Of a stretch of 64,000 nucleotides of DNA, positions 20,853 to 52,788 are shown one piece after another. The notes below the pieces were generated by a model. It made no database searches. It was not told the DNA's origin and was given only the letters and a program-made list of their open reading frames with translations. The DNA is taken from contig NZ_AAUW01000007.1 of NCBI RefSeq assembly GCF_000168975.1, positions 124,001 to 188,000 of the forward strand. Direction: 5' to 3'. Origin of the DNA: Roseibium aggregatum IAM 12614 (GTDB taxonomy: Bacteria; Pseudomonadota; Alphaproteobacteria; Rhizobiales; Stappiaceae). The translations under genes were made by a program, and so were the position numbers. Within the stretch, counting starts at the first letter, position 1. Each line of letters opens with the position of its first letter.

Positions 20853-20868
20853 AAGCTTACGCCAGGCT
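20853..20868. promoter_or_regulatory. Flagellar 16-bp semi-palindrome (DUF1217-flgF-fliI unit)
   Basis: AAGCTTACGCCAGGCT matches the island consensus AAGCTTGCGCGAGGCT at 14 of 16 positions and ends 58 bases before the DUF1217 ATG. It also sits 110 bases before the divergent motA start, so it could serve both units. Confidence 0.5.
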
Positions 20869-20978
20869 GACGGTCGGCAATGAATTTCAAAAGCTTTTTC
20901 GCGTCAGCTTCAGGCAAGTCTCGGCCGCTAGCGTCCTCCCAATCAGAGTTGCAATCCACACCAGTTGGGAGCTGTTAG

Positions 20979-21875
20979 GTGACTATTCTTATCGGCCTGA
21001 TCATAGCGGGCGCGTCCCTTATCGGCGGCTTTGCCGCACTCGGAGGCAAGGTCTCCGTCCTCTGGCAGCCGTGGGAGCTCGTCATTATTCTCGGCGTGGC
21101 TATCGGTGCCTTCGTCGTTGCCAATCCAATGAAGGTCATCAAGGGAACGCTGGTTGCCGTTTCGGATGCGCTGCGCAACGCCGTGCCCAACAAGCGGGAA
21201 TACCTCGATGTTCTGGCACTGCTGTATGGACTGATGCGCGAGTTGCGCGCCAAGGGCCGCAACCAGGTTGAGCCGCACATCGAAGACCCGAATACTTCAC
21301 CGATTTTCCAGAAGTATCCGTCGGTTCTGCGCAATGCCAGCCTGACCACCTTTATCTGCGACTATTTCCGTCTGATCATCGTCGGCAATGCCCGCGCTCA
21401 TGAGATCGAAGCTCTGGTCGACGAAGAACTGCAAACGATCCACCGCGACCAGATGAAGCCGTACCATGCCATGAGCAGCATCGCCGACGCGCTTCCCGCC
21501 ATCGGCATCATCGCGGCCGTCCTCGGTGTCATCAAGGCCATGGGTGCCATCGACCAGTCTCCCCAGTTGCTGGGCAGCCTGATCGGCGCCGCGCTGGTGG
21601 GTACATTTGTCGGCATCTTCTTCTCATACTCGCTGTTCGGCCCGATTGCCTCGAAGATCCGCAACGTCCGCGAGAACCGCCTTCGTACCTACATCGTTGT
21701 CAAGCAGACCCTGCTTGCCTTCATGAACGGCGCCGATCCTCAGATCGCCCTTGAGCACGGCCGCAAGACCATCTCCGACTACGACCGTCCAACCATCGAC
21801 GAAGTTGAAAACGAGACCATGAGTGCCGGTGGCGCTGGTGCCGACAACGTCCAGGACCTGCAGGGAGCCGCCTAA
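20979..21875 (+). CDS. motA: Flagellar motor stator protein MotA
   Basis: MotA forms the proton-conducting stator with MotB in the inner membrane. The 298-aa protein has helices near residues 3-22, 33-50, 170-190 and 200-222, with the conserved Pro in [14 protein letters not shown] and a large cytoplasmic loop rich in charged residues. The start is GTG. It heads the plus-strand operon motA-fliM-DUF6468-fliN-fliG-flhB; motB is in the fliF operon 20 kb away. Confidence 0.95.
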
Positions 21876-21878
21876 GCC

Positions 21879-22838
21879 ATGATCGAAGCAGCGACCGCAA
21901 GCTCCAACGCTTCCAGCTCCGAACGCGCGATGATCGCCGACCGTCTGCTGGATGCCGCCGGAATTTCCGTCGACCGCCTGCCGATGCTTCCGGTGGTGTT
22001 CGACCGCATGGCCCGCCTGATGGCTGACGCCATGCGCCAGAAGTCCCCCTCTCCGTCCTACATTTCGGTGAGCTACGTTGAAAACAACCGCATTGGCGAC
22101 GTACTCGACGAATTCGAATCCAACGCCCTCGTGGCCGTGCTCTATTCTCCGGAATGGGACGCCCGTGTCCTCGTCGGCTTTGACCGGGACTTCATCTTCA
22201 CACTGGTGGACGTTCTGTTCGGTGCTGACGGCACGGAACCGCCCATCGATGACGAACGGCCCTTTTCGAACATCGAAACGCGCATTGCGCGCACCATGTT
22301 CGAGGTCGCGGCCAAGGCCCTCGCCGAGAGCTTTGCACCAATCGCCGAGACCACGCTTAAGATCGAGCGGATCGAAAGCCGGATGGACTTTGCGGTAGTC
22401 GGTCGGAGGAACAACCCGGCCGTGGTTGCCCGCTTGCTGCAACAGGCCATCGGACGCGGCGGTGAAGTGTTCATCGTCATGCCGCACTCGACACTCAACC
22501 CGTTGCGCCAGCGCCTGTCCCAGGTCCTGTCCGGCGAAATGTCGAGCCGCGACAAGCAATGGACACAGCACTTCCACAACGAGATCCAGCGCACAGAAGT
22601 CAAGCTGGAAGCCATTCTGGAAGAACGTGAAATGTCGCTCGGCGACCTTGCCAACCTGAGGGTCGGACAGGTGATCGAACTTCAGGCGACAGCGCGCTCT
22701 CCCGTCACACTCGCCTGCAACGACCAACCCGTCTTCACCTGCCAGCTTGGGCAGTTGAACGGATCCTACACGTTGCAGATCGATGAACTCATCCATGAGG
22801 AAGAAAAGGATCTGTTCGATGATCTCCGCAATCGTTGA
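21879..22838 (+). CDS. fliM: Flagellar C-ring switch protein FliM
   Basis: FliM is the middle C-ring component of the rotor switch. The 319-aa protein has a divergent FliM core and a C-terminal SpoA/FliN-like domain (about 235-310, SLGDLANLRVGQVIEL). The N-terminus (MIEAATASSNASSSERAMI) lacks the EIDALL-like CheY-binding motif of enteric FliM. It follows motA by three bases and overlaps the next gene by 20. Confidence 0.9.
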   Translation: MIEAATASSNASSSERAMIADRLLDAAGISVDRLPMLPVVFDRMARLMADAMRQKSPSPSYISVSYVENNRIGDVLDEFESNALVAVLYSPEWDARVLVGFDRDFIFTLVDVLFGADGTEPPIDDERPFSNIETRIARTMFEVAAKALAESFAPIAETTLKIERIESRMDFAVVGRRNNPAVVARLLQQAIGRGGEVFIVMPHSTLNPLRQRLSQVLSGEMSSRDKQWTQHFHNEIQRTEVKLEAILEEREMSLGDLANLRVGQVIELQATARSPVTLACNDQPVFTCQLGQLNGSYTLQIDELIHEEEKDLFDDLRNR

Positions 22839-23388
22839 TGGCGTCCTCCTGCTCGCGCTGGTCGCGACCACGGTCCGGATGCTCACCATGCACCGGGAGC
22901 TGCGCCGTCTGGGCAGCTACCACGAAGATTACCAGCGCATCTTCGATCAGACCGCACTCGCGCTCGACGGCATCGAGGTGTCGATCCAGGAGATCAACGT
23001 CAAGGGTGCCCAGATCCTGAATGCGCTCGGCAACCGGATGGACGATGCCCGCGAGCTGATCGCGGAAATCGACGGTCTGACCCGTGAGGCGAAACGCCAG
23101 CAGTCTGTGCTTCGGGCAGAGCTGAAAGAACTGTCCAAGGCGACCGCTGTCCTGCACGACCCGAAGCGTTTTGCACCTGCCCGCGACGACATCGACATTT
23201 TCGCAGAGGACACAGCTGGTGAACGGGCACTTGCCTCAGCCACTCCCACACCTGCTGGCGGGCGCAAGGAAACGACCATTCATCGCGGCCAGGCCGTTCA
23301 ACCGGCCCCCACCCGCGTCCACCGTATCGACAATTCGCTGCAAAGCCCGTTCCGCACGGTCTCCATGAACCAGAAGGATAAGATGTAA
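22819..23388 (+). CDS. DUF6468 flagellar-operon protein
   Basis: The 189-aa protein has one N-terminal membrane helix (about residues 2-16), then a coiled coil (about 20-105) and an Ala/Pro-rich tail. Proteins of this type (DUF6468) sit between fliM and fliN in rhizobial flagellar operons. The ATG at 22819 lies in the end of fliM, and its stop overlaps the fliN start. It is likely a membrane-tethered accessory to the C-ring or stator; function is inferred only from position. Confidence 0.82.
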   Translation: MISAIVDGVLLLALVATTVRMLTMHRELRRLGSYHEDYQRIFDQTALALDGIEVSIQEINVKGAQILNALGNRMDDARELIAEIDGLTREAKRQQSVLRAELKELSKATAVLHDPKRFAPARDDIDIFAEDTAGERALASATPTPAGGRKETTIHRGQAVQPAPTRVHRIDNSLQSPFRTVSMNQKDKM

Positions 23389-28775: not shown

Positions 28776-28885
28776 GCTGGGCTCCTCGAAATACGTAAGG
28801 TGCAAACAAGGCCCGGCAGGCGACAGGGCAAGGCAAGCAATTCACTTGAACCGAACCTTGTTTGCGTCCTCAGGTATAGCTCATG

Positions 28886-28901
28886 CAGCTTGTGGGAGGC
28901 T
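28886..28901. promoter_or_regulatory. Flagellar 16-bp semi-palindrome (flgJ unit)
   Basis: CAGCTTGTGGGAGGCT matches the island consensus at 13 of 16 positions and lies 110 bases before the flgJ ATG. It is one of the weaker matches. Confidence 0.35.
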
Positions 28902-32231: not shown

Positions 32232-32276
32232 GCCTTCTCTCTGCTGCAGGTCTGATACCTGGCAACCTCGCCCTTG

Positions 32277-32292
32277 AAGCTTGCGCGAGGCT
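32277..32292. promoter_or_regulatory. Flagellar 16-bp semi-palindrome (flhA unit)
   Basis: AAGCTTGCGCGAGGCT is used here as the reference copy of the island motif. It lies 45 bases before the flhA ATG and is roughly symmetric about GCGC. Confidence 0.6.
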
Positions 32293-38046: not shown

Positions 38047-38062
38047 TAACTTGCGCGAGGCT
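38047..38062. promoter_or_regulatory. Flagellar 16-bp semi-palindrome (flgE unit)
   Basis: TAACTTGCGCGAGGCT matches the island consensus at 14 of 16 positions, 46 bases before the flgE ATG. An AT-rich stretch lies just upstream. Confidence 0.6.
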
Positions 38063-38135
38063 GTTGTTGGAAAATAATTATTCTTTCCATTCATATACTT
38101 AGTTATCTAAAATTTTAACTTTCAAGCAACGTGAG

Positions 38136-38161: not shown

Positions 38162-38170
38162 TTTAAAAGT

Positions 38171-38746
38171 TCAAGCGTCGCAGAATTGCTTGGACTTCTT
38201 TGTCCAATTGCCGAAACCGGAAGCAACCATGTTGCGGATCACGGTACAGACATACCGCTTTTGTGCAGGATCATTGTTCGGACCTGCATGATAGCGGGCA
38301 ACGGCCATCGTCCAGGACCCCTGGCGCTGCTTCAGGTTCTTCAGGAATCTTGCGGCATATTGCACATTCGCACGCGGTTCCAGCATCTGGTCCACGGAGC
38401 GGAACTGGTCACCATGATAATGATGGTTTATCTGCATGCAGCCGATGTCGATCAGTTTCTTGCCATGCAACCTGGCATCCATCACGTCCTGTTTCGCGGC
38501 TTGCCGACTTGGCGGAAACACCGACTTTCCCTCGATATTGAGGGCATAGGGATACAGCGAATTACGCCGCCCGGTTTCCGTCAGGCCGACCGCGTAAAGC
38601 ACGCCGAGCGGAACGTTGTATTTTCGCGCGGCAGCGATCATCTCGCGTTCGCAAACGTTCTGTGTCTCGGCAGCCGCTGGCAGACTAACGGCGAGCGCAC
38701 TAAAGATAGATGCCGTCAGAAAGGCTGACGTCAGAACCTTCCTCAT
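38171..38746 (-). CDS. Exported lytic transglycosylase (SLT domain)
   Basis: The 191-aa protein has a Sec signal peptide (about residues 1-26, ending LPAAAE) and an SLT-type lysozyme fold with the catalytic Glu in AVGLTETGRR and the family segments LIDIGCMQINHHYHG and NVQYAARFLKNL. It probably opens peptidoglycan for rod assembly, since flgJ here has no muramidase domain. It overlaps the fliK end by 47 bases and closes the fliF operon. The ATG at 38746 follows AGAGGAACAGG. Confidence 0.88.
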   Translation of the reverse strand: MRKVLTSAFLTASIFSALAVSLPAAAETQNVCEREMIAAARKYNVPLGVLYAVGLTETGRRNSLYPYALNIEGKSVFPPSRQAAKQDVMDARLHGKKLIDIGCMQINHHYHGDQFRSVDQMLEPRANVQYAARFLKNLKQRQGSWTMAVARYHAGPNNDPAQKRYVCTVIRNMVASGFGNWTKKSKQFCDA

Positions 38747-41214: not shown

Positions 41215-42716
41215 TACCGAGCCCCTTCCAGAAGGTAGATCTCGATCCGGCGATTGGAGGCAGCAAAAGGATCGGACGGAACTTTCAGGTCTTTGTCGGC
41301 ATATCCTTCAACCCGGTTGAACCTGTCCTTGCCGACACCACCACGCGAGAGCATGTAGAGAGCCATGTGAGCGCGGGCAGACGACAAGCGCCAATTGTCA
41401 TAGGTCTTGCTCCGGAACGGGCGCGCATCCGTGTGGCCCTTGATGACGATCTGACCCGGTGTGTCTGCAACGATCTTTCCAATCCGCTCAAGCAATTTGA
41501 CCAGTTCCGGCCGCGGCTCAGCGGAACCGATGGCAAACATACCGAAGTTCTGGTCGTCGGTGAGGCTGATCAAGGCGCCCTCGCCTTCTCTCGTCACCGT
41601 AATCTGGCTGGCGGTTTCCTCAAGGACGGTCCCCTCAGTTTGAGCGAGGACTTCCGAAAGGCGGGCGACCAGCACCTCAGCGCTGCTTTCTGTGAAATCT
41701 TCTTCGTAAGTGCCCTCGCCTTCACCGGCTCCGGTTCCAACGACCGTTTCAGTCTCACTTTCGAAGACAACCTCGCCAGAAGACTGCTCCAGTGATTTGC
41801 CGAGAACGTGGGCGACAACTGGATCCGTCGTTTCTCCGTTGTCGGGAAGAGTGCCGGTGCCGACAAATTCAAATGACGTCGTTCCGGCTTTTTCCGCCAT
41901 GTAGTCGCCTTTCTTCGCCCCTTTGCCAGGAGCAGCGTTTCCGTTCTGCTGTGCAATGCCGGTCTCCGATTGCGTGCCTTCGTCAAATGGAGCGGCATAG
42001 GCGAAGTCGCCCGCCATCGCATGAGAGGACGGCGCGGTACCATCGCCCGGCAGGCTCACGTCAGGCGCGGCTTCGGCACTTGCCACACCGCGGCCTGGAC
42101 GGAATTGCCAGAACATCGGATCGAAAGGATCCCGATAGGCCTGACCACCCTGAACACCTTCATTTTTCTGAAGCCCGGTACCGATACCTTTGGGATTATC
42201 TTCACGCACATCAGCGACACGAATTTTCTGCGAAAGGGTGTCGAGAACAGCATAGGGATCCGTGAACAGGATCGATTCCGAATGGGTCTGGGTAAACTGC
42301 CCCGAAGCCGGCGCACCGCCCATTTCCGGCGTCTCGATCACTTCCTCCAGCTTATGCCCTTCATCCAGGCCATCGCCGAAATTCTCGTCCTGATCGACCG
42401 GCGCATCCGAGCCGCCCAATTTGCCCGTAAACAGTTTGGTGCCTGCCTCGTTGGTTTCGCCGTTGATCTCTGGATCATTCAGCCCCTTACGATTGGGGGC
42501 CGTGGAGGCAAGCTTGACCGGGTTGAAATACTGCGCCACGCCGCGGCGTACGCTGTCGTCGGTCACGTTGATCAGCCACATGACCAGAAAGAAGGCCATC
42601 AAAGCGGTCATGAAATCGGCATAAGCGATTTTCCAGACGCCATGTGGCGTTTGATCGTCTTCCCAGCTGTTCTTGCGCCGGACAATTACGATTTCATTCG
42701 GGACGCCGTCCAACAT
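41214..42716 (-). CDS. motB: Flagellar motor stator protein MotB
   Basis: MotB anchors the stator to peptidoglycan and carries the proton-binding Asp. The 500-aa protein has one N-terminal helix (about 30-50) with Asp34 in AYADFMTALMAFFLVMWLIN, and a C-terminal OmpA-like domain (about 395-495: IVIKGHTDARPFRSKTYDNW). The linker of about 340 residues between helix and OmpA domain is acidic and unusually long compared with the roughly 300-aa enteric MotB. Confidence 0.93.
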   Translation of the reverse strand: MLDGVPNEIVIVRRKNSWEDDQTPHGVWKIAYADFMTALMAFFLVMWLINVTDDSVRRGVAQYFNPVKLASTAPNRKGLNDPEINGETNEAGTKLFTGKLGGSDAPVDQDENFGDGLDEGHKLEEVIETPEMGGAPASGQFTQTHSESILFTDPYAVLDTLSQKIRVADVREDNPKGIGTGLQKNEGVQGGQAYRDPFDPMFWQFRPGRGVASAEAAPDVSLPGDGTAPSSHAMAGDFAYAAPFDEGTQSETGIAQQNGNAAPGKGAKKGDYMAEKAGTTSFEFVGTGTLPDNGETTDPVVAHVLGKSLEQSSGEVVFESETETVVGTGAGEGEGTYEEDFTESSAEVLVARLSEVLAQTEGTVLEETASQITVTREGEGALISLTDDQNFGMFAIGSAEPRPELVKLLERIGKIVADTPGQIVIKGHTDARPFRSKTYDNWRLSSARAHMALYMLSRGGVGKDRFNRVEGYADKDLKVPSDPFAASNRRIEIYLLEGAR

Positions 42717-43354
42717 CAGTCTGCCTCCCCTTTCAAAGCATCAAGCTGGCCCAGCCATTGTCCGAGCCGAGTCTCGATGGTCGTCTCATCCAGCAGAGCC
42801 ACCAGCTCGACCTGGTCTGCGTGCTGCACATCGATCCGGTCTCGCAAGGTGGGCAACTGTTCCAGCACACGGCTGACCAGCGTCTCCGACCCGCGCAGCC
42901 TAATCATCTTGCCCTCTGTTTCCTCGGTCAGTTGCCGAAGATTGCCGGCAAAGGCCTCCACAAGCTGATCGACGATCTTCTCGGTCAGGAAAGGTTGCAG
43001 CAGCTTGGCCAGCGAATAGGAAATCCGCTGTTCCATCACATTGAGAAAGCCTTCGATCGAAGCACTGACGTTGGCCGCTTCCCGCATGTCGAAGCGGTCC
43101 CGCTCTTCGTTGAGGCGTTTTGCGTGTTCTTCGCGTTCCTGTTCCAGCAAAGCCTGGAAATGGGCCATCGTGCTGTTGCTACCTTCGGCCAGGCCGCGCT
43201 CGTATTCGGCCTGAAGCTTTTCTTCCAGGCTCGGCTCGGGCGCAGTTTCCTCGCAAGGTTCCAGAACATCCACGAGCGCGGGATCGAACGCCGCAAAGGA
43301 TTTGAATCTGGATGCTGACAGGACGGGAATATGGGAAGCGATTGACGTGGGCAT
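42716..43354 (-). CDS. fliH: FliH-like export ATPase regulator
   Basis: The 212-aa protein lies directly after fliF and has the FliH plan: a disordered N-terminus, a charged coiled coil (about 45-90, KLQAEYERGLAEGSNSTMAH), then a FliH/VATPase-E-like domain with AFAGNLRQLTE. It probably tethers FliI to the C-ring. It overlaps both neighbours by one base. Sequence conservation is low in this family, so the call rests on plan and position. Confidence 0.72.
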   Translation of the reverse strand: MPTSIASHIPVLSASRFKSFAAFDPALVDVLEPCEETAPEPSLEEKLQAEYERGLAEGSNSTMAHFQALLEQEREEHAKRLNEERDRFDMREAANVSASIEGFLNVMEQRISYSLAKLLQPFLTEKIVDQLVEAFAGNLRQLTEETEGKMIRLRGSETLVSRVLEQLPTLRDRIDVQHADQVELVALLDETTIETRLGQWLGQLDALKGEAD

Positions 43355-45000
43355 TAGATGCGCTCCGATTCATAAAGCCACTGGCGCAGGATCGCGGCGG
43401 ACTGTTCCTCATTGAATTCCAGCAAGGATTCCAGCTTCCGAAGCGCGGATTTGTTGCGCCTGCTGTTGAGGTCTTGCAGCATGTCGGAATGATCCGGCGG
43501 CATCAGGAAGGTCTGTTCTCCATCGACGGCCTCCACAGTTCCTTCCGCCGTTTCGGGCGTCATGCCGAGTTCGGCCATTTCAACCTGTGGCTTGGCTATT
43601 TGCGGCACCAGGGCAGCAACGGCAGGCCGCAGACCGAACCAGATCACCAGCATCGATACAGTCAGGATCGCAAGCGCATTGATGATGTTGCCGGACTGGC
43701 GCATCAGATATTCGGTGATGCTGATCGGCGGGATTGGCTCCATCGCCCGGCCGCCGTCTACAAAGTCAACGACCGCGACCTTTACCAGGTCCCCGCGCTC
43801 CTTCTCGATACCTGCGGAAGAGGCGACCAGCGCTTCGATCTCGGTGAGTTGTTCCTGCATCTGAGCCTGGGTCGGCTCACCTCCGAGAGACTGAGCAAGG
43901 CGGGATTTGTCGACCAGAACCGCGATGGACAGCCGGTCGACCCGATACCCGTCCTGCGACGTCTCGATGCGCTTTGAGGAGATCTCGTAGTTGACGGTTT
44001 CCTCACGGCGCTCATTTTCTTCGCTGGAACGCTCGCCGTTGTCCGCAGACACGTCCTCTTCGGGAAGGTTCTGCTCCACCGTTGTCGGTGCCGATACGCT
44101 GGAGTTCTGCGCGTTCTCGTTTTCGCGAATGGTCCGGATGGATCGTTCGGTCCGCGAGTCCGGATCGAAAATCGTCTCGGCAATCGTCTTGCGGTCGGTG
44201 TTGAGCTCCGCCGCGACACTGACCTGGAAATTGTCGAGGCCGAGATAGGGCGTCAGGGTCTTTCGGATATTTTCCTGGATCCGGTTGCTAACGGCCGTTT
44301 CAAGGCTGGCGAGCTGGCCTGCAGAAGCCTTTGTCGGGTCCTTTCCGGCCGCCAGAATGCCACCTGACGTGTCGAGCACCGTGACCTTGTCGGCCTGCAT
44401 GCCTGGAACCCCGGCCGCAACCAGATGACGGATGGCATCGGCGGTTCGTACGTCATCTGGAACGTCGGACCGGATGACGACAGAGGCAGACGGCGGCTGC
44501 TGGTCGCGTCGGAATGATCCTTTTTCCGGCAGCACGATATGAACGCGGGCAGCACGAATACCCTTCATGAGCTGAATGGTGCGGGCAAGTTCGCCTTCCA
44601 GCGCACGCACCCGAGTCACTTCCTGCATGAAGGAGGTCAGCCCGAGAGACCCCAGCTCGTCAAAGAGCTCGTAGCCAGAGTTTGCGCCTCGAGGCAGGCC
44701 TTTTTCAGCAAGAAGCATGCGCGCTTTCGCAGTCTGCGCATGACTGACCATAACGGCAGTGCCTTCCGAATTGATGTCGAAAGGAATACCGGCATCCCGC
44801 AACGCGGAGCCGATGCGAGTGACATCTTCACCATCGAGACCCGTGTAAAGGACGGTCTGTTCCGGCCGGCTCAGATAATATGCTCCCGCGCCGACGGTCG
44901 CGATTGTAGCGAGCCCGATCAAGGCGAGCGCGACAAGTCTGCGCACTCCCAGTTCCATCAGGTTTGCCCATAGTTTTTCGGCGTGTTCACGGCCCGGCAT
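43354..45000 (-). CDS. fliF: Flagellar MS-ring protein FliF
   Basis: FliF forms the MS-ring. The 548-aa protein has two membrane helices (about 20-40 and 428-450), the secretin-like domains between them (LMKGIRAARVHIVLPEKGSF), and a C-terminal FliG-binding tail (SALRKLESLLEFNEEQSAAI). The ATG at 45000 was chosen over 45015 because AAGGGG lies 6 nt before it. Confidence 0.95.
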   Translation of the reverse strand: MPGREHAEKLWANLMELGVRRLVALALIGLATIATVGAGAYYLSRPEQTVLYTGLDGEDVTRIGSALRDAGIPFDINSEGTAVMVSHAQTAKARMLLAEKGLPRGANSGYELFDELGSLGLTSFMQEVTRVRALEGELARTIQLMKGIRAARVHIVLPEKGSFRRDQQPPSASVVIRSDVPDDVRTADAIRHLVAAGVPGMQADKVTVLDTSGGILAAGKDPTKASAGQLASLETAVSNRIQENIRKTLTPYLGLDNFQVSVAAELNTDRKTIAETIFDPDSRTERSIRTIRENENAQNSSVSAPTTVEQNLPEEDVSADNGERSSEENERREETVNYEISSKRIETSQDGYRVDRLSIAVLVDKSRLAQSLGGEPTQAQMQEQLTEIEALVASSAGIEKERGDLVKVAVVDFVDGGRAMEPIPPISITEYLMRQSGNIINALAILTVSMLVIWFGLRPAVAALVPQIAKPQVEMAELGMTPETAEGTVEAVDGEQTFLMPPDHSDMLQDLNSRRNKSALRKLESLLEFNEEQSAAILRQWLYESERI

Positions 45001-45051
45001 GCATAACCCCTTCATGCACGTAACGTTCTGTTTGACCCACTATCGGAACTG

Positions 45052-45067
45052 GACCTTGCGCGAGCCT
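45052..45067. promoter_or_regulatory. Flagellar 16-bp semi-palindrome (fliF unit)
   Basis: GACCTTGCGCGAGCCT matches the island consensus at 13 of 16 positions, 51 bases before the fliF ATG. The fliF promoter is the known target of FtcR in Brucella, which makes this site the best one to test. Confidence 0.55.
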
Positions 45068-45100
45068 GTTACCCGGGGCTGCGGACGGAAGATCCGGGCG

Positions 45101-45129
45101 AAAAAAAACCGCGCCCCGAAGGGCGCGGT
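45101..45129 (-). terminator. UUCG-loop terminator after the flagellin gene
   Basis: On the minus strand, ACCGCGCCC-TTCG-GGGCGCGGT is followed by eight T. The stem is perfect, 9 bp, and lies 37 bases after the fliC stop. This isolates fliC from fliF. Confidence 0.95.
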
Positions 45130-45166
45130 CCTCTTGCCTGGTAATCCGGCCAGATAACTGGATGGA

Positions 45167-46069
45167 TTAACGGAACAGGGACAGAATGTTCTGCGAACCC
45201 TGGTTGGCGATCGACAGCGCCTGGATACCGAGCTGCTGCTGTGTCTGCAGAGCCTGGAGGCGGGTCGATTCCTTGTTCATGTCAGCATCCACGAGCTGGC
45301 CGACACCACGGTCGATCGAGTCGATCAGTGCGGACACGAAGTCCTTCTGCAGGTCAACGCGCTTCTTGGTGGAACCGAGCAGGGTTGCGGAGTCTGTGAT
45401 GAGGCCGAGAGCTTCGTCGACGTCCGAGATCATGCCTTCCAGAGTGGTCAGGTCGGCTGCGGCATCCGTCAGGCCGGAAATGTCGATGGTATCGACAACG
45501 TTACCGTTCGTCAGAGCACGATCAAGGATACCGGAACCACCACCAGTGGTGTCATAGAGCTGGGTAGCGGTGATATCGACCGTGGTCGTCAGAACGGAAA
45601 CCGCACCACCGACGCGGGTGAAGGAGCTGACGATTTCCTTCGACGTCACCGTGGAGACGTCGGAAGACAGCCAGTTTTCACCGTTGAAGACAGCGGATTC
45701 GGCAGTTGACTTAAGCTGGTTCTGCAGTTCGTTGATGTCGGACTGGATCTTGCCGCGGTCAACACCCGGAGTACGGGCGGCAACAAGCTTGGATTTGATC
45801 TCGTTCATGACATCAACAGTGCTGTCCATAGCAGTGTACATGACGTCGACGGTCGCAGCACCCAGACCCAGAGAGTCTTCAACGGCGCTGAGAGCCATGT
45901 TGTCGGAACGCATGGTGGTTGCGATGGACCAATAGGCAGCGTTGTCTTCCGCGCCGGCAACGCGATAACCGGTAGAGATGCGGTTTTGCGTCTCTGCCAG
46001 GTTGGCGCTGGTGTTCCGCAGAGTCTGCAGAGCGGTCATTGCGGAAGCGTTCGTCATCAAGCTAGACAT
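45167..46069 (-). CDS. fliC: Flagellin
   Basis: The 300-aa flagellin has the conserved ends (SAMTALQTLRNTSANLAETQ / NRISTGYRVAGAEDNAAYW and QQQLGIQALSIANQGSQNIL, LFR at the C-terminus) and a short central D1-D2 region. It is the only flagellin gene in the window and is monocistronic, bounded by terminators on both sides. The ATG at 46069 follows AAGGGAC. FlbT and FlaF, encoded 11 kb away, are the expected post-transcriptional regulators. Confidence 0.96.
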   Translation of the reverse strand: MSSLMTNASAMTALQTLRNTSANLAETQNRISTGYRVAGAEDNAAYWSIATTMRSDNMALSAVEDSLGLGAATVDVMYTAMDSTVDVMNEIKSKLVAARTPGVDRGKIQSDINELQNQLKSTAESAVFNGENWLSSDVSTVTSKEIVSSFTRVGGAVSVLTTTVDITATQLYDTTGGGSGILDRALTNGNVVDTIDISGLTDAAADLTTLEGMISDVDEALGLITDSATLLGSTKKRVDLQKDFVSALIDSIDRGVGQLVDADMNKESTRLQALQTQQQLGIQALSIANQGSQNILSLFR

Positions 46070-46214
46070 GATATGTCCCTTCAATGTGTCAGTGTGTTAC
46101 TGGATTGGATTGGGACATGCCGGGTTTTCACCGGCACAGCAGGAGCAGCGTCATGCTTTTGAACCGTGGGTAGGATTGAGGTTCAACCTGCTGTGAAAAC
46201 GACCCTAGCGGCTC

Positions 46215-46230
46215 AATCTTGCGCGAAGCT
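46215..46230. promoter_or_regulatory. Flagellar 16-bp semi-palindrome (fliC)
   Basis: AATCTTGCGCGAAGCT matches the island consensus at 14 of 16 positions, 145 bases before the fliC ATG. The larger distance leaves room for a long 5' leader, such as FlbT would bind. Confidence 0.5.
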
Positions 46231-46325
46231 TACGTCGATGCGGGCAATTTGATCTTTTTGGTATTTCGGCGGGACCCAACTCCACGACAAAAAATCTAAT
46301 CGCTCACGATCATATCGTAGAAAGC

Positions 46326-46357
46326 AAAAAAGGCGGAGCCTGCCGGCCCCGCCCTTT
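46326..46357 (-). terminator. Intrinsic terminator after fliP
   Basis: On the minus strand, a GC-rich hairpin (GGCGGGGCC, 4-base loop, GGCTCCGCC) is followed by six T, about 25 bases after the fliP stop. It ends the motE-flgH-fliL-fliP unit. Confidence 0.88.
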
Positions 46358-46378
46358 TGCGCCCCGACGCCCCGTCGG

Positions 46379-47122
46379 TTACAGGAATGATCGCACAAGA
46401 CTGCCGACCAGAAGGTTCCATCCATCGATCAACACGAAGAACAAGGCCTTGAAAGGCAATGATATGACCGTTGGCGGCAGCATCATCATGCCCATGGACA
46501 TGGTGATCGTTGCAACGATCATATCGATCACGAGAAAAGGCAACGCGATCAAAAAGCCGATTTCGAAACCCCGTCGCAATTCGGAAATCATGAAAGCCGG
46601 GATCAAGACGCGCAAATCGACTTCTTCCGCCGAGGCAGCCTCGTTATCCGTCACCCGGCCGGCAGCAAGGTCATCGAAAAGAACAAGATCTTCTTCGCGT
46701 ACCTGGCTCAGCATGAAATCCCGGAATGGAGTCGTGATCCGCACATAGGCCTCTTCCTCGGAAATCTCGTTGTTCATGAGCGGCTGAACACCCTGCTCCC
46801 AGGCTTTGTCGAAAGTCGGCGCCATGACGTAGAACGTCATGAAAAGTGCCAGCGAAATGAGGATCAAATTGCCCGGAGTGGTCTGAAGGCCGATACCGGA
46901 CCTCAGGAACGAGAAAGCAATCACGAAGCGGGTGAAGCTCGTCACCATGATGAGGATGCCCGGCGCCAGAGAGAGCACCGTCAGCAGCGCAATCATCTGG
47001 ATGATACGGCCGCTGGCACTACCCTCTCCGGCAGGCAGCAATGCTGACAGATCCGGCACCTGGGCAGCAGCAGCCCCCGTCATCGCGACCAGTACGAGGC
47101 CAGCAACAAGAAGACGGCTCAT
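46379..47122 (-). CDS. fliP: Flagellar export gate protein FliP
   Basis: FliP is the main subunit of the export-gate pore. The 247-aa protein has a cleavable signal peptide (about 1-20, GAAAAQ), four membrane helices, and family motifs APGILIMVTSFTRFVIAFSF and LLPPTVISLPFKALFFVLID. It overlaps fliL by four bases. No fliO is present. Confidence 0.96.
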   Translation of the reverse strand: MSRLLVAGLVLVAMTGAAAAQVPDLSALLPAGEGSASGRIIQMIALLTVLSLAPGILIMVTSFTRFVIAFSFLRSGIGLQTTPGNLILISLALFMTFYVMAPTFDKAWEQGVQPLMNNEISEEEAYVRITTPFRDFMLSQVREEDLVLFDDLAAGRVTDNEAASAEEVDLRVLIPAFMISELRRGFEIGFLIALPFLVIDMIVATITMSMGMMMLPPTVISLPFKALFFVLIDGWNLLVGSLVRSFL

Positions 47123-47619
47123 TGAATGACCACCGATTCCAGAATGACCTCACTCACCTGACCTCTGGTGCGGGTCTGGGCGCGCTCGGTAAGATCTTCT
47201 CGAAGATGCTGCAAACCGATCCCGCCTTCCAGATGAGACAGGGTAAGCGTGCGCATATAGCCGAGAAAATCGTCCTCGACCTTTTTCTTGAGAACACCAG
47301 CATCGCCATCCGGGTCGTCTTCGAGGAGAATTGAAGCCTGCACCCGGATCCATGCATCTTGCGGCGATGCCAGGTTTGTCACCAGCGGCTCGAGCCTTTG
47401 CAGACGCGTCGAAGGAGAAAACGGCAGCGTGTCGGTGAAGCTCTGCTGCTGGCGGAGCCGCCCGTGAACTTCCTCTTCGGTGTAGTCTGCGACATATTTC
47501 GCAAGACCCGCTCCAGCACCGCCGCCAATCAGTGTCAGCAACACCATTGCCGCGACGAAGCCGGAGCTTCGCTGTTGCTCCTGCGCACCTTCAAAGGGAA
47601 CTTCGATGATATTTGGCAT
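47119..47619 (-). CDS. fliL: Flagellar basal-body-associated protein FliL
   Basis: FliL surrounds and supports the stator. The 166-aa protein has one membrane helix (about 20-42, SGFVAAMVLLTLIGGGAGAG) and a periplasmic domain ending in the typical FliL tail. A second FliL-like protein is encoded at 47% of the window's distance away, at 27473-27928. Confidence 0.87.
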   Translation of the reverse strand: MPNIIEVPFEGAQEQQRSSGFVAAMVLLTLIGGGAGAGLAKYVADYTEEEVHGRLRQQQSFTDTLPFSPSTRLQRLEPLVTNLASPQDAWIRVQASILLEDDPDGDAGVLKKKVEDDFLGYMRTLTLSHLEGGIGLQHLREDLTERAQTRTRGQVSEVILESVVIQ

Positions 47620-47649
47620 TTCGGTCTTTCCGATATTTTCAGGAAGGGC

Positions 47650-48354
47650 TCAGAAGGGCGTCACGATGTCGTAGATCTGCTGCCCCCAGGCCGGTTGCTG
47701 AACCTCGGTGATCCTGCCGCGGCCGCCATAGGAGACCCGCGCTTCGGCAATCTTGTCGTAAGGAATGGTGTTGTTGGCCTGAATGTCGCGGGGACGTACA
47801 ATGCCGGCGATCTGCAGAATGCGCATTTCGAAGTTCACACGCATTTCCTGAGATCCGGAGATCACGAGGTTGCCGTTCGGCAGACGATCCGTGACCACAG
47901 CAGCAACGGAAAGCTGAATTTCCTCCGACCGGTCGATGGAACCGGAGCCTGCAGAGCCTGAGCCGGAGTCGACACCCAGATTGCCACTTCCGCCATGGCC
48001 GATGCCGTCCCAGTCGTAGTCCATCGTGCCGCCCCAGCCGATATCGGAAGTGCGCCGGCGATCCGACTTGTTGTCCATGTTGGCGCGGTCGTTGATCTGG
48101 ATGGTGACTGTCAGCACATCACCGACTTTCTTCGCCCGTGGATCTGCAAAGAAGTTGTCGCGGCCACTGGCCCACAAGGAGTTGTAGTCCTTGACGGTGC
48201 CCTGTCCGAAAGTGCTGAGCGGATAAGCGGCGGGCTGCTGAACGGCAAGACCATACCCGACCGGTGTCATCTCCGGTGCGCGACCAACATCTTCCAACTG
48301 TCCGGCACAACCGGTCAGCATCGCAGCTCCGAAGGAGAACATAATAGCGCGCAT
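47650..48354 (-). CDS. flgH: Flagellar L-ring lipoprotein FlgH
   Basis: FlgH forms the outer-membrane L-ring. The 234-aa protein has a lipobox LTGC (Cys16) and the family motifs VGDVLTVTIQINDRANMDNK and NLVISGSQEMRVNFEMRILQ. Its start overlaps the motE stop by one base. Confidence 0.95.
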   Translation of the reverse strand: MRAIMFSFGAAMLTGCAGQLEDVGRAPEMTPVGYGLAVQQPAAYPLSTFGQGTVKDYNSLWASGRDNFFADPRAKKVGDVLTVTIQINDRANMDNKSDRRRTSDIGWGGTMDYDWDGIGHGGSGNLGVDSGSGSAGSGSIDRSEEIQLSVAAVVTDRLPNGNLVISGSQEMRVNFEMRILQIAGIVRPRDIQANNTIPYDKIAEARVSYGGRGRITEVQQPAWGQQIYDIVTPF

Positions 48355-48896
48355 CAGAAACTCCGTTGTATTTCGGGATGGGTCAGCCCCATCATCGACT
48401 GGGTTAGCTGGGCAGCGCGGGAAGGCTCCATCTCATCGAGAATGCTGCTGGCAACGCGGGCTTTCAGTTTCAGAAGAACGCCAACAGCGGCTTCCTCATC
48501 GGTTGTCTGAAGCTGTGCCGCAGCGGCCTCCGGGCGCATGCGTCCAATGATGGACACAACCTGATCCTCGACTTCATTGAGCAGGTCTTCCCGCCGCTCG
48601 ACCCATTTTTCGAATTCGCGTTCCTTGCGCTGCAGCTCCTCAATTCTGTCCCGCAGGCTCGCCTCGAGGCTGATCAGCTTCCAGGTCTGCCACTTGATGC
48701 GCGCATCCGAGGCCGCTTCGGCGATGTTCTTGCAATAGAGTTCGCTGTCCTGTGGCGGTACGGGCGCAAGTGCGCTTTCACGCGCTTGCGGCTTCTGGCG
48801 CGGCGCCTGGGCAACGGCCGGGCCACCGAGTGTGATCGAAACTGCCGCAACCACCAGAAGCGTGAATGTGCGGCCGCGGTCCAAATGTCGTGGCAT
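48354..48896 (-). CDS. motE: MotE-like periplasmic chaperone of MotC
   Basis: The 180-aa protein has a signal peptide (about 1-29, GGPAVAQA), a coiled coil (about 70-100, DRIEELQRKEREFEKWVERR), and a C-terminal MgtE_N-like segment (VLLKLKARVASSILDEMEP). MotE in Sinorhizobium is a chaperone specific for MotC, which is encoded here too. It is often annotated as 'flagellar protein' or 'MgtE intracellular N domain'. It precedes flgH in the same order as in rhizobia. Confidence 0.82.
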   Translation of the reverse strand: MPRHLDRGRTFTLLVVAAVSITLGGPAVAQAPRQKPQARESALAPVPPQDSELYCKNIAEAASDARIKWQTWKLISLEASLRDRIEELQRKEREFEKWVERREDLLNEVEDQVVSIIGRMRPEAAAAQLQTTDEEAAVGVLLKLKARVASSILDEMEPSRAAQLTQSMMGLTHPEIQRSF

Positions 48897-48942
48897 AAGG
48901 CCTTCCCTTTGCAGAACCTCTTTGGACGCACAATCGGAGATC

Positions 48943-48958
48943 GAGCTTGCGTGAGGCT
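48943..48958. promoter_or_regulatory. Flagellar 16-bp semi-palindrome (motE unit)
   Basis: GAGCTTGCGTGAGGCT matches the island consensus at 14 of 16 positions, 46 bases before the motE ATG and directly after the flgI terminator, as expected for a promoter of a separate unit. Confidence 0.55.
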
Positions 48959-48966
48959 GTCGCAAG

Positions 48967-48996
48967 AAAAACGCCGCTTCGAAAAGCGGCGTTTTT
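48967..48996 (-). terminator. UUCG-loop terminator after flgI
   Basis: A perfect 13-bp stem (AAAAACGCCGCTT / AAGCGGCGTTTTT) with a TTCG loop on the minus strand and a T-tail lies 90 bases after the flgI stop. It separates the flgB-flgI operon from motE-flgH-fliL-fliP. Confidence 0.95.
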
Positions 48997-49086
48997 GGAA
49001 TTGCACTCCCGGAGGAGACGGATTGGGATCATCACGATTTCAGAAGACGGGAACGGCTCCCTTTTCCGGACAGAACCGGCCCTGAG

Positions 49087-50193
49087 TTATTGCACCACGA
49101 GTTCCGCCTGCAGCGCCCCGGCCGTCTTGATCGCCTGGAGGATCGCTATGATGCCGGTTGGACGCAGACCGATCCGGTTGAGACCGCGCACCAGCGTTGG
49201 CAGATCCGTTCCACCAACAACGGCAAGCTGGCCACCGCTTTCCTGCGCATCGACATAGGTTCTCGGGACGACGACAGTCTGACCGTTCTGCGAGAACGGA
49301 GACGGCTGCGAAACCTCGGGCGCTTCCGAAATTCGGACCGTCAGATTGCCATGTGTAATGGCCACGGTCGAAATCTGCACATCCTTGCCGATAACCACAG
49401 TTCCGGTCCGCTCATCGATAACGACTTTCGCTGTCTGATCGGGCGTCACCCGAATGGCTTCGATTTCGGCAATAAACCGTGTAACGCTGATGTTCTGCGG
49501 CGGCGTGAGCACGACCGTCCGGTAGTCCCGTTCCTTGGCCACCTTGATCCCGTATCGTTCCCTGGTGAACTGATTGATCGCGTCGGCAATGCGCACCGCC
49601 GTCCGGAAATCCGGGTTTGAAAGCTCGAGCACCAGATTGGGAATTTGCGAAAACTTAGCCGGCAAATCTCTTTCGATGAGACCACCATTTGGAACCCGTC
49701 CAACGGTCGGAATGCCCTGTGTCAGACTCTCCGCCTGGCCCAGTTCAGCAAAACCGGACACTGCGACCGGGCCCTGCGCAACCGCATAAATCTGCCCATC
49801 CGCTCCCAGCAAAGGGGTGGCGATAAGTGTCCCGCCAGCAAGCGACGTGGCATCGCCGAGCGAAGACACACTCACATCGATCGTCGATCCCTGGCCAATA
49901 AAGGATGGCATTTCGGCGGTTACGACCACGGCCGCAACGTTCCGCGTCCTCAGCCGCGCATCGCGCACGTTTACCCCCAGGCTGTCGAGCATCGATTGCA
50001 GCGACTGTTCCGTGAATGGGGAATTCCGCAACGTGTCGCCAGACCCCTTCAGACCGATGACGAGGCCGTAGCCGACGAGCTGGTTGTCGCGCACCCCTTG
50101 CAGACTGGCGATGTCCTTGATCCGGACCATGGACATTGCCGACACCGGCAAGGCCAACAGTGCAGCCAGAACAAAAACGAGTACCCGGATCAT
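49087..50193 (-). CDS. flgI: Flagellar P-ring protein FlgI
   Basis: FlgI forms the periplasmic P-ring. The 368-aa protein has a signal peptide (about 1-19, LALPVSA) and family motifs VRIKDIASLQGVRDNQLVGY, GLKGSGDTLRN and LNRIGLRPTGIIAILQAIK. The ATG at 50193 follows GGAGAACTG. Confidence 0.96.
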   Translation of the reverse strand: MIRVLVFVLAALLALPVSAMSMVRIKDIASLQGVRDNQLVGYGLVIGLKGSGDTLRNSPFTEQSLQSMLDSLGVNVRDARLRTRNVAAVVVTAEMPSFIGQGSTIDVSVSSLGDATSLAGGTLIATPLLGADGQIYAVAQGPVAVSGFAELGQAESLTQGIPTVGRVPNGGLIERDLPAKFSQIPNLVLELSNPDFRTAVRIADAINQFTRERYGIKVAKERDYRTVVLTPPQNISVTRFIAEIEAIRVTPDQTAKVVIDERTGTVVIGKDVQISTVAITHGNLTVRISEAPEVSQPSPFSQNGQTVVVPRTYVDAQESGGQLAVVGGTDLPTLVRGLNRIGLRPTGIIAILQAIKTAGALQAELVVQ

Positions 50194-50197
50194 AAAT

Positions 50198-50653
50198 TCA
50201 GTTCTCCACACGTATGGTGCCGTCTTCTTGAACCCGTCCGGAAACCACCAGACCGCTGTCGACATTGCGCACGCGCACGAAATTGCCGGCTCCGCCGTTT
50301 TGAAGCGCTTCCACCTGCATGATGATCATCAGGCCCTGTTCCCGGAAGACCAGCCGCGCCGGTTCACCACGACGAACAAGGACCGGCTTTTCGACAGAGC
50401 TGATCGGCACAGGCTGTCCCGGCAGCAACGTGCGCCGTGCAACCATTCCAACCAGTTGGCCCCTGTTGGTTGAAACAGCGAATTGCTGCGCTGTCCGGGT
50501 CGGAAACGATCGTTCGATCAGATCCTGATGTGAGATTTCAGTTCCAGCCTGAATTGTCTGGCGCGGCACCGGCAGATCTATGCCGCCGGCAGCACGAGCT
50601 GCCGCAGTGCTGAAAACCAGGACCAGCGCCAGGAACAAGGATCGGATCAACAT
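50198..50653 (-). CDS. flgA: P-ring assembly chaperone FlgA
   Basis: FlgA helps assemble FlgI in the periplasm. The 151-aa protein has a signal peptide (about 1-22, AAARAA) and a SAF-type domain (VPRQTIQAGTEISHQDL, ARRTLLPGQPVPISS). It lies four bases before flgI and is shorter than enteric FlgA, as in other alphaproteobacteria. Confidence 0.93.
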   Translation of the reverse strand: MLIRSLFLALVLVFSTAAARAAGGIDLPVPRQTIQAGTEISHQDLIERSFPTRTAQQFAVSTNRGQLVGMVARRTLLPGQPVPISSVEKPVLVRRGEPARLVFREQGLMIIMQVEALQNGGAGNFVRVRNVDSGLVVSGRVQEDGTIRVEN

Positions 50654-50667
50654 CGCATCAACTCCTG

Positions 50668-51456
50668 TTAGCGAATACCGTTGGTGACAGTACCTGCCAT
50701 CTCGTCAGCGGCCTTCATGACCTTGGAGTTCATTTCATACCCGCGCTGGGCGCTGATCAGGGCCGTGATTTCCTTCACGGGATCGACGTTCGAGCTTTCA
50801 AGGTAACCCTGACGGATAACGCCGAACCCCGGATCGCCGGCAACACCGGAAACGGGTGAGCCTGAGGCTTCCGTTTCGCGGAACAGGTTACCGCCAACAG
50901 GTTCCAGACCGACATCATTGGCGAAGTTGGAAAGCGTCAACTGGCCCAGTTCGCGCGGTGCCATTTCGCCGTCAACCTTGGCGAAAACCTGGCCGGATTC
51001 GTTGACAACCACCTCGATGGTTTCCTGCGGAACGATGATTGCAGGTTCAACCGGGTAACCATCGATAGTCACCAGTCTGCCGTCAGCGTTCTTGTTGAAA
51101 GAGCCCGCCCGGGTAAACAGCGTTTCGTCGTCCGGCCCGGTGATTTCGAACCAACCCCGGCCGTCAAGCGCGACATCGAACTGGTTACCGGTGTTGGTCA
51201 GCGAGCCTTGCGCATGAAGCTTGCGGATGCCGGCAGTACGAACGCCGAGACCAAGCTGCGCGCCCTCCGGCACGGGATCCTCACCGCCCCGGTTTGGCAC
51301 CCCTTGCAGACGCTCGGCCTGATACAGAAGGTCGGAGAATTCCGCCTGGGATCGTTTGAAGGACGTCGTATTCATATTGGCGATGTTGTTGGCGACAACT
51401 TCGACATTCATCTGCTGCGCGCTCATGCCAGTCGCGGCGATAGCAAGGGCTTTCAT
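50668..51456 (-). CDS. flgG: Flagellar distal rod protein FlgG
   Basis: FlgG builds the distal rod. The 262-aa protein has the classic ends [20 protein letters not shown] / [18 protein letters not shown] and [20 protein letters not shown] / [11 protein letters not shown]. Length equals that of the family. Confidence 0.97.
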
Positions 51457-51504
51457 GGATTTTCTCCTGGTAATTACAATCGCTTATCAAGACCTACGGC
51501 TCGA

Positions 51505-51837
51505 TCAGATCGACATGCGGCTGATTTCCTGATAGGCGCTCACGACCTTGTCGCGGATGGCAATCGCGGTCTGGAGGGTGGATTCTGCAGCCATGACCGC
51601 CTCGACCACCTGCTGAACTGAAGCCTGGCCGTCGACACCTGCAATGGACGCCGCTTCACCCTGCTTGATCTTGTCGATCGCATCCGTCGAAACTTTCGCC
51701 ATCGCGTCGGAGAAACTGATTTCTCCCACAGAGCCGGTGCCGCCCAGATCTGGCGTGCTCGCCGTGTACCTCGTGGTGGAGGCAGCCTTCAGGACGCCGT
51801 CGGTCGACGAGGTTAGTGCGGAGATTTCATTGATCAT
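51505..51837 (-). CDS. fliE: MS-ring/rod adapter FliE
   Basis: FliE links the MS-ring to the rod. The 110-aa protein has the family C-terminus (QVVEAVMAAESTLQTAIAIR, DKVVSAYQEISRMSI) and a variable N-terminal half. It lies two bases after flgC. Confidence 0.95.
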   Translation of the reverse strand: MINEISALTSSTDGVLKAASTTRYTASTPDLGGTGSVGEISFSDAMAKVSTDAIDKIKQGEAASIAGVDGQASVQQVVEAVMAAESTLQTAIAIRDKVVSAYQEISRMSI

Positions 51838-51839
51838 GA

Positions 51840-52256
51840 TCAGTTCCTCAACAGGTCGATGTTGCGCATGACCATTTCGCGGGCCTGCGTCATGACTTTC
51901 AGATTGGCTTCGTAAGAACGGTTGGTTTCGCGCATGTCGGCCAGCTCAAGCAGCGTGTTGACGTTCGGCATCTTCACGTAGCCGTTCTCGTCCGCCGCCG
52001 GATGTCCGGGGTCATATTCCACCGCAAACTCGGCCTTGTCCTCGCCGATGCCCTTCACGGACACCAGGTTGGCCTGAACGGCACGGCTGAACTCGCTTTC
52101 GAAAGTGATGGTCTTGCGACGGTAAGGGTCGTCCCCGGCAGCTTCCCCGGTCGAGCGGGCGTTGGCGAGGTTTTCGGACACAACTCTCAAGCGTTCCGAC
52201 TGCGCCCTCAGGCCGGCGCCAGAAATCTGCAAGGTTGCGGAAAGCGGATCGGACAT
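51840..52256 (-). CDS. flgC: Flagellar proximal rod protein FlgC
   Basis: The 138-aa rod protein has LSATLQISGAGLRAQSERLR at the N-terminus, ENLANARSTG, and the C-terminal LADMRETNRSYEANLKVMTQ. It is downstream of flgB by 12 bases. Confidence 0.96.
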   Translation of the reverse strand: MSDPLSATLQISGAGLRAQSERLRVVSENLANARSTGEAAGDDPYRRKTITFESEFSRAVQANLVSVKGIGEDKAEFAVEYDPGHPAADENGYVKMPNVNTLLELADMRETNRSYEANLKVMTQAREMVMRNIDLLRN

Positions 52257-52268
52257 GATTGTTTTCCT

Positions 52269-52649
52269 TTAGGATTTCACTGCGGACAGGTACATGCGAT
52301 GGAAAGACTTCGCGATACTGGCGTTCAACGAATGATCGCGCGCGACCTCTCCTGCCTTCATGAGTTCCTGTTCCAGGCTGACGGAGTTTCCGGAATGGGT
52401 AACGGTCCAGCTGTCTGCCTTTTCGACATCGGACTTGCGCGCGGCTTCCATCGTCTGGCCCAGATGGCCGTCATGGGTTGCCGTCATGGCGAGCTGGGTT
52501 CTGCTGATCACCGTGGTGAACGGCTCCAGGTCCTTGGACCGGAAGCCCGGCGTATTGGCGTTGGCAATGTTCTCGGCAATGGTCGCCTGGCGGACGGAAA
52601 GCCAGTCATTGCTGTTCGAAACGAGTTTGGTCAGGAACACGGGTTCCAT
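52269..52649 (-). CDS. flgB: Flagellar proximal rod protein FlgB
   Basis: The 126-aa rod protein has ATIAENIANANTPGFRSKDL and the C-terminal helix typical of FlgB. It is the first gene of flgB-flgC-fliE-flgG-flgA-flgI and marks the right end of the flagellar island. Confidence 0.95.
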   Translation of the reverse strand: MEPVFLTKLVSNSNDWLSVRQATIAENIANANTPGFRSKDLEPFTTVISRTQLAMTATHDGHLGQTMEAARKSDVEKADSWTVTHSGNSVSLEQELMKAGEVARDHSLNASIAKSFHRMYLSAVKS

Positions 52650-52772
52650 GGAAGACCTCCTATCGGCTCAGGTTGCCCCAAGGGATAGTCAGCCAAGCTT
52701 GCCCGAAACTGTTCGGCCGAACGTGTTCATCAGTCAGGCCGACAGAGAGCCCTCCAGAACCTTTGCGGCATA

Positions 52773-52788
52773 AGGTTCGCGCAATCTT
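52773..52788. promoter_or_regulatory. Flagellar 16-bp semi-palindrome (flgB unit, inverted copy)
   Basis: Read on the minus strand, AAGATTGCGCGAACCT matches the island consensus at 13 of 16 positions. It lies 123 bases before flgB and 66 bases before the divergent 181-aa gene, so it could act on either. Confidence 0.4.

What the first reader, a model, noticed from the sequence alone, without database searches (positions are those of the whole stretch)
20853..52788. A recurrent 16-bp semi-palindrome marks eight flagellar transcription units
By eye I find AAGCTTGCGCGAGGCT or a close relative (13-16 of 16 matches) upstream of DUF1217-flgF-fliI (20853), flgJ (28886), flhA (32277), flgE (38047), fliF (45052), fliC (46215), motE (48943) and, inverted, flgB (52773). 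In five cases (flhA, flgE, fliF, motE, DUF1217) the distance to the ATG is 45-58 nt. I found no copy inside the operons. The motif is nearly symmetric about GCGC, as expected for a dimeric regulator. It is most simply read as the operator of the FtcR/Rem-like activator encoded in the island, or as a core element of a dedicated flagellar promoter. I do not know whether this motif has been described in this group.
Basis: partly seen in the sequence, partly recalled or inferred. Interest (0 to 1): 0.78.

Follow-up and report, generated by a model that had tools for sequence, protein, structure and literature searches.

The report
One switch for a second flagellum
A short DNA element sits in the same place and direction before each run of flagellar genes in this Roseibium-like genome and before matching genes in many related bacteria, which suggests that one regulator, probably FtcR, switches on a whole flagellum.

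Summary
The 16-mer occurs 9 times at <=3 mismatches (100 shuffles: mean 0.89, largest 4); a matrix scan adds a tenth copy, before motA. On the gene strand it reads AGCYTCGCGCAAGCTT and points one way relative to its gene.

It is not a palindrome but an 11-bp direct repeat (AGCYT-N6-AGCTT) in the -35 slot, with a -10-like block 7 bp further on. That suits a PhoB/OmpR-type activator working with the housekeeping polymerase.

The box recurs at orthologous operons in 7 same-genus genomes and across the order at FtcR-linked flagellar loci. De novo search of 71 upstream regions from other groups recovers it, 68 gene-forward. Flagellar hook genes of 17 FtcR-less genomes lack it, but they belong to another flagellar system.

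Best reading: operator-promoter of FtcR for an accessory, lateral-type flagellum. Binding is inferred, not shown. A 2025 Methylosinus paper reported an unassigned "Motif 3" on the same genes; Brucella FtcR ChIP-seq reported a different 8-mer.

The parts
20853..20868 (-). box before the DUF1217-flgF-orf-fliI run; -10-like block 20840-20845 (GAGTGT)
   Evidence: 4 of 4 genomes with the gene in the fetched piece
   Evidence: 4 of 4 genomes with the gene in the fetched piece
28886..28901 (-). box before the flgJ run; -10-like block 28873-28878 (TATACC)
   Evidence: 8 of 8 genomes
32277..32292 (-). box before flhA-fliR; -10-like block 32264-32269 (GAGGTT); flhA start 32231
   Evidence: 8 of 8 genomes
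38047..38062 (-). box before flgE-flgK-flgL-flaF-flbT-flgD; block at the -10 position 38034-38039 (TTGACT)
   Evidence: 8 of 8 genomes; site recognisable in 36 of 37 other loci
45052..45067 (-). box before fliF-orf-motB-orf-fliK-SLT; -10-like block 45039-45044 (GATAGT)
   Evidence: 8 of 8 genomes
46215..46230 (-). box before fliC (flagellin); -10-like block 46202-46207 (TAGGGT)
   Evidence: 8 of 8 genomes; mostly absent before fliC outside the family (2 of 25 at threshold)
48943..48958 (-). box before the motE/FlbB-like gene-flgH-fliL-fliP; -10-like block 48930-48935 (GATTGT)
   Evidence: 8 of 8 genomes
   Evidence: 8 of 8 genomes
   Evidence: 7 of 7 genomes where orf52855 was found, scores 10.6-21.9
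16066..16920 (-). FtcR/Rem-like OmpR-family regulator, the proposed binder (conserved start probably at residue 18)
   Evidence: Trans_reg_C 60.4 bits against a cut-off of 26.2; alignment with 12 relatives

Best explanation
The motif is the activator-binding half of a dedicated flagellar promoter. Two AGCYT half-sites stand head to tail with an 11-bp period where a -35 hexamer would be, and a -10-like block (TAnnnT) begins 7 bp after the 16-mer. The FtcR/Rem-like OmpR/PhoB-family protein of the island most likely binds the two half-sites as a tandem dimer and brings in RNA polymerase with the housekeeping sigma factor. One and the same element leads each same-strand run of flagellar genes in the island: rod, hook, motor, export and, in this genus, flagellin. 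Shown by computation: sites, orientation, spacing, direct repeat, recurrence in relatives, co-occurrence with FtcR. Inferred: that FtcR is the binder, that it activates, and that the housekeeping sigma is used.
For: Ten boxes, one orientation, none inside an operon. Conserved before orthologues in 7 same-genus genomes. In 69 loci of other groups: 78 of 176 regions before operon-leading genes pass the threshold, against 4 of 548 before other genes and 1 of 724 on the opposite strand. De novo search without prior matrix: 68 of 71 gene-forward. Direct repeat of 11 bp. TAnnnT at offset 23 in 38 of 118 sites chosen without the -10 columns, at most 3 at any other offset. No TTGACA-type promoter on the gene strand in 36000-53500. 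FtcR present in 24 of 41 genus genomes (plus the window's own); strict-pattern hits that score 21 or more as full elements, 17 of 17, lie in FtcR-positive genomes, and 9 of 9 hits in FtcR-negative ones score 16.4 or less. FtcR is kept where it is unlinked from the island in 4 genomes. Hook genes of FtcR-less genomes lack the box.
Against: No binding data. Brucella melitensis FtcR ChIP-seq gave TGTGGGCA, which does not resemble the box (PMC9456535, passages). FtcR-less genomes lack this whole flagellar system (their FlgE is only 31-43% identical), so co-occurrence does not separate FtcR from another regulator tied to the system. In the window itself a strict TAnnnT stands at the -10 position in 2 of 10 boxes; A at its second position in 9 of 10, T at its last in 7 of 10. 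About half of the operon-leading regions outside the family fall below threshold (98 of 176). FtcR has no box of its own (0 of 69).
Confidence: 0.8

Rival explanations
1. The element is the promoter of a dedicated alternative sigma factor (a stand-in for FliA): the conserved box is its -35, the TAnnnT block its -10.
For: The spacing between box and -10 block is fixed and the box fills the -35 slot.
Against: No FliA over the curated cut-off in the genome: three sigma-70-family matches, best 110 bits against 189.6 (other sigma families not searched). The -10 block resembles the housekeeping TATAAT. A 14-16-bp box with an 11-bp direct repeat is more like a two-site operator.
Confidence: 0.08
2. 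Another regulator tied to this flagellar system, not FtcR, binds the box (for instance a VisNR-like pair; VisNR is recalled, not searched for).
For: Co-occurrence with FtcR is confounded with co-occurrence with the system. The published Brucella FtcR motif is different.
Against: FtcR is kept even where unlinked from the island; an 11-bp direct repeat is what OmpR/PhoB-family proteins are known to use (recalled), while LuxR-type pairs bind dyads (recalled).
Confidence: 0.09
3. A symmetric operator for a homodimer.
For: The GCGC core and AAGCTT give partial symmetry; best inverted correlation 0.41.
Against: One orientation, a -10 block on one side, direct repeat 0.68 against whole-16 palindrome 0.25.
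Confidence: 0.03

Closest known systems
Motif 3 of Methylosinus sporium 5 (PMC12403871; section 8 and passages seen)
   Same: [quoted passage not shown] called novel, no database match. In Methylosinus sp. Sm6 I find a box at motA (15.7), one facing DUF1217/flgF (18.9) and a weak one at flgE (9.2).
   Different: Its letters are in a figure and a supplement that I could not read, and its regulator is not named in what I saw; identity with the box is an inference.
FtcR of Brucella / Rem of Sinorhizobium
   Same: The window's protein is an orthologue-level relative of the family found at Brucella rhizosphaerae, Ochrobactrum and Mesorhizobium flagellar loci, and Brucella FtcR acts on flgE and fliF (review PMC8781033, passages).
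   Different: The Brucella ChIP-seq motif TGTGGGCA (PMC9456535, passages) is not this box. The original FtcR and Rem papers are not held.
PhoB/OmpR-type operators (pho box; recalled)
   Same: 11-bp direct repeat in place of a -35 hexamer, upstream of a -10.
   Different: Different letters; no binding shown here; spacing to the -10 may differ (not compared).
sigma54 flagellar promoters (FlbD/FliX type; recalled)
   Same: Lead flagellar operons; sigma54-like sites stand before flgE of the other flagellar system in this genus.
   Different: -24/-12 layout and no box; best box score 7.1 in 19 loci.
Lateral-type and subpolar-type flagella of Rhizobiales and Labrenzia (PMC6406911; passages)
   Same: Reports both sets in Labrenzia, Pannonibacter and Polymorphum; the window's island matches its lateral-type gene order (lafR ... 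flgJ fliR flhA ... flgE fliK motB fliF ...).
   Different: The word promoter does not occur in that paper.

Membership tests
OmpR/PhoB-type operator-promoter | direct repeat with about 11-bp period | tested here: met
   correlation 0.68 at shift 11, best of 19 shifts; 2 of 5040 column orders reach it, the observed order included
OmpR/PhoB-type operator-promoter | fixed position relative to a -10 block | tested here: met
   38 of 118 TAnnnT at offset 23, at most 3 elsewhere; weaker in the window, 2 of 10 strict
OmpR/PhoB-type operator-promoter | no canonical -35 | tested here: met
   no TTGACA-type promoter on the gene strand in 36000-53500, which holds five of the boxes on that strand
OmpR/PhoB-type operator-promoter | bound by an OmpR-family protein | not testable with these tools
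   inference from co-occurrence
FtcR/Rem regulon | FtcR/Rem orthologue encoded in the genome | tested here: met
   window 16066-16920
FtcR/Rem regulon | box absent where FtcR is absent | tested here: inconclusive
   met in 19 of 19 flgE loci of 17 FtcR-less genomes (one of the 19 is a C-terminal piece), but these are of another flagellar system
FtcR/Rem regulon | same letters as the published Brucella FtcR motif TGTGGGCA | tested here: not met
   the 8-mer occurs once in the window, at 9038, away from the boxes, 0 times in L188 (B. rhizosphaerae) and once in L169
FliA (sigma28) promoter | FliA encoded in the genome | tested here: not met
   0 matches over the cut-off
symmetric operator | palindromic profile and no fixed orientation | tested here: not met
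Motif 3 of Methylosinus sporium 5 | same letters | not testable with these tools
   letters only in figure and supplement; boxes present in Methylosinus sp. Sm6

The most novel reading that the evidence does not exclude
This is an order-wide third class of flagellar promoter beside the sigma28 and sigma54 classes. One FtcR box with a housekeeping -10 runs the structural operons, so that in Roseibium basal body, hook, motor and flagellin share one regulatory tier, and the accessory flagellum travels as a self-contained set of parts plus its own switch, beside a sigma54-driven flagellum in the same cell.
Probability: 0.5. Interest if true: 0.68.

Novelty: new member of a known kind. Interest (0 to 1): 0.6.

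Why it matters
FtcR/Rem is a known flagellar master regulator, but in the papers I could see (and passages of seven papers) no box like this one is assigned to it. A precise order-wide box with a predicted transcription start would make this regulon readable from sequence, would give the unassigned Methylosinus Motif 3 a candidate owner, and conflicts with the published Brucella 8-mer in a way that one footprint can settle. It also suggests how a cell keeps two flagella under separate switches.

Tried and rejected
Tried and rejected. (1) Symmetric operator: rejected on orientation and repeat analysis. (2) FliA promoter: TIGR02479 finds three sigma-70-family proteins, none over the cut-off. (3) The ORF 38171-38968, which I first took for FtcR: an SLT transglycosylase; one search was therefore a search with that protein, and served only to find syntenic relatives. 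(4) Box-like hits near the SLT gene in G002, G003, G006 and G007: no -10 block and probably within fliK coding sequence; left out of the 31-column matrix, as was the wrongly picked flhA site of G010 (its real site scores 24.0). (5) A regulon beyond the island: 62 off-island hits scored, none convincing; hits with more mismatches not examined, chemotaxis genes not looked up. (6) FliX as a marker of FtcR-less genomes: found in 28 of 32, FtcR-positive Roseibium included, because these carry both systems. (7) PMC3616915, S. meliloti start sites (passages): 'flagell' does not occur. (8) PMC8639532 (passages) and PMC10572780 (passages): no FtcR or Rem binding motif in them. (9) Letters 'cgcgcaag' with 'flagell': 20 papers listed; by title and abstract start none concerns this. 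(10) The sigma54-like sites were found with loose regular expressions and no chance control. (11) The matrix was trained on the window and its relatives, so island scores are not independent; the tests on other groups are, though pick sites by that matrix.
Full report
OBSERVATION. [quoted passage not shown] On the gene strand the element is AGCYTCGCGCAAGCTT, and each copy points the same way relative to its gene. flgB's box is 52695-52710; the copy at 52773 faces the divergent gene at 52855. A tenth box precedes motA at 20906-20921. By the ORF table each same-strand run of flagellar genes then begins with one box; operons were not tested by experiment.

CHANCE. A 31-column matrix (box plus -10 block) separates the sites: island boxes score 21.8-32.8; of 71 genome hits at up to 1 mismatch of a degenerate 16-mer (reversed control 55), 9 are island boxes and 62 are elsewhere; 1 of the 62 reaches 21.8, at 22.1, inside an 828-codon frame. 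The matrix was trained on these and orthologous sites, so only the tests on other groups are independent.

RELATIVES. Seven same-genus genomes keep the gene order of the parts fetched. A box stands before flgB, motE, fliC, fliF, flgE, flhA and flgJ in 8 of 8 genomes (window included), before DUF1217 and motA in 4 of 4 where the gene lies in the fetched piece, before orf52855 in 7 of 7 where that gene was found (16-column scores from 10.6). A strict pattern gave 42 hits against 10 reversed in 41 genus genomes.

ANATOMY. Anchored on the box, a second block 7 bp downstream is conserved: T-A-n-n-n-T. On 118 sites from 48 loci outside the Stappiaceae-like set, chosen without the -10 columns, TAnnnT stands at offset 23 in 38 and at any other offset in at most 3; A and T at its second and last positions stand there in 76, elsewhere in at most 13. 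In the window itself the block is weaker: strict TAnnnT in 2 of 10, A second in 9 of 10, T last in 7 of 10. The box is an 11-bp direct repeat, AGCYT-N6-AGCTT: profile correlation 0.68 at shift 11, best of 19 shifts (next 0.35); best inverted match 0.41; whole-16 palindrome 0.25. Two of 5040 column orders reach the observed value, the observed order included. With a 17-bp spacer the first half-site falls in the -35 slot, and no TTGACA-type promoter is found on the gene strand in 36000-53500 (3 found, all on +; shuffles 5.1).

ORDER-WIDE TEST. Of the 80 named loci, 11 Stappiaceae-like ones were dropped, leaving 69. At threshold 17.5, 78 of 176 regions before operon-leading genes pass (flgE 22 of 37, fliF 17 of 29, flgB 6 of 8, flgJ 14 of 29, flhA 13 of 33, fliC 2 of 25, DUF1217 2 of 7, motA 1 of 5, motE 1 of 3), against 4 of 548 before other genes and 1 of 724 on the opposite strand; FtcR's own upstream passes in 0 of 69. 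Below threshold the flgE site is still recognisable 39-53 nt before the start in 36 of 37 (scores from 9.9). Expectation-maximisation on 71 of 78 upstream regions (7 near-duplicates dropped; flgE, fliF, flgB, motA), with no prior matrix and both strands open, converged on CAGCTTCGCGCAAGctt: 68 gene-forward, 1 reverse, 2 none. The named loci include Mesorhizobium, Ochrobactrum, Brucella rhizosphaerae, Bartonella clarridgeiae, Bosea, Methylobacterium, Hyphomicrobium and Jiella.

WHICH REGULATOR. An OmpR-type protein lies at 16066-16920 (Trans_reg_C 60.4 bits), 48-61% identical to 12 relatives with a well conserved DNA-binding domain. Matches at E <= 1e-20 occur in 74 of 249 genomes of the order, 7 of them weak (E above 1e-24) and perhaps paralogues; only 9 candidates per genome were scored there. 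In the genus 23 of 40 further genomes have it. Of the strict-pattern hits that came with a locus (30 of 42), 17 score 21 or more and all lie in FtcR-positive genomes; 9 lie in FtcR-negative genomes and score at most 16.4; 4 more in FtcR-positive genomes score 17.3 or less. In G002, G003 and G006 the regulator lies over 200 kb from the island and in G007 on another contig, yet is kept. Of 22 FtcR-less genomes searched, 17 gave 19 flgE hits; none has a box (best 7.1) and 17 have a sigma54-like site 67-99 nt upstream by a loose pattern. Those flgE are 31-43% identical to ours, of another flagellar system; this is co-occurrence with the system, not loss of a box at one gene.

TWO FLAGELLA. The window's genome also has that other system (flgE at C46, 83% identical to that of a FtcR-less relative; FliX about 17 kb away), as do 23 of 24 FtcR-positive genus genomes for flgE; in 4 of 4 checked the flgE has a sigma54-like site at -79 or -80 and no box. 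That Labrenzia and Pannonibacter hold a lateral-type and a subpolar-type set is already in print (PMC6406911, passages).

LITERATURE. [quoted passage not shown] In five methylotroph-side genomes that I checked, motA has a box-like site in 5 (14.7-15.8) and flgE in 4 (9.2-24.2), none in Lichenibacterium; in Methylosinus sp. Sm6 a second box faces DUF1217/flgF. Motif 3 is thus probably this element, seen before without an owner. Against my reading, Brucella FtcR ChIP-seq gave TGTGGGCA and described an action independent of fliF (PMC9456535, passages). The original FtcR and Rem papers are not held; what I say of them is recalled.

VERDICT. Observation confirmed and extended; interpretation right in kind, wrong on symmetry. 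That FtcR binds and activates is an inference.

Noticed in passing
window 16066-16920 (-), alignment A1: The receiver half of the FtcR-like protein looks atypical: at the place that by eye answers to the phospho-acceptor Asp, the window has D, 9 of 12 relatives E, 2 Q and 1 R. It may work without phosphorylation.
   Followed up: partly
G000:C46:177910-196610: A second flagellar system (flgE, FliX) in the same genome; its flgE relatives have sigma54-like promoters. The FtcR island is thus an accessory flagellum, in 24 of 41 genus genomes.
   Followed up: yes
window 52855-53778 (+): An unknown 181-aa protein and a PilZ-domain protein sit divergently from flgB behind a box of their own; a c-di-GMP reader may belong to the regulon.
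   Followed up: partly
window 11779-15634 (-): A GGDEF-EAL protein and a histidine kinase lie just downstream of the FtcR-like gene on the same strand; neither has a box in the other loci tested (HK 0 of 6, EAL 0 of 4).
   Followed up: no
G000:C9:3523-3538 and 3610-3625: Two identical box-like 16-mers 87 bases apart inside a 462-codon open frame, with 31-column score 8.9 each: a repeat in a coding sequence, not a promoter.
   Followed up: no
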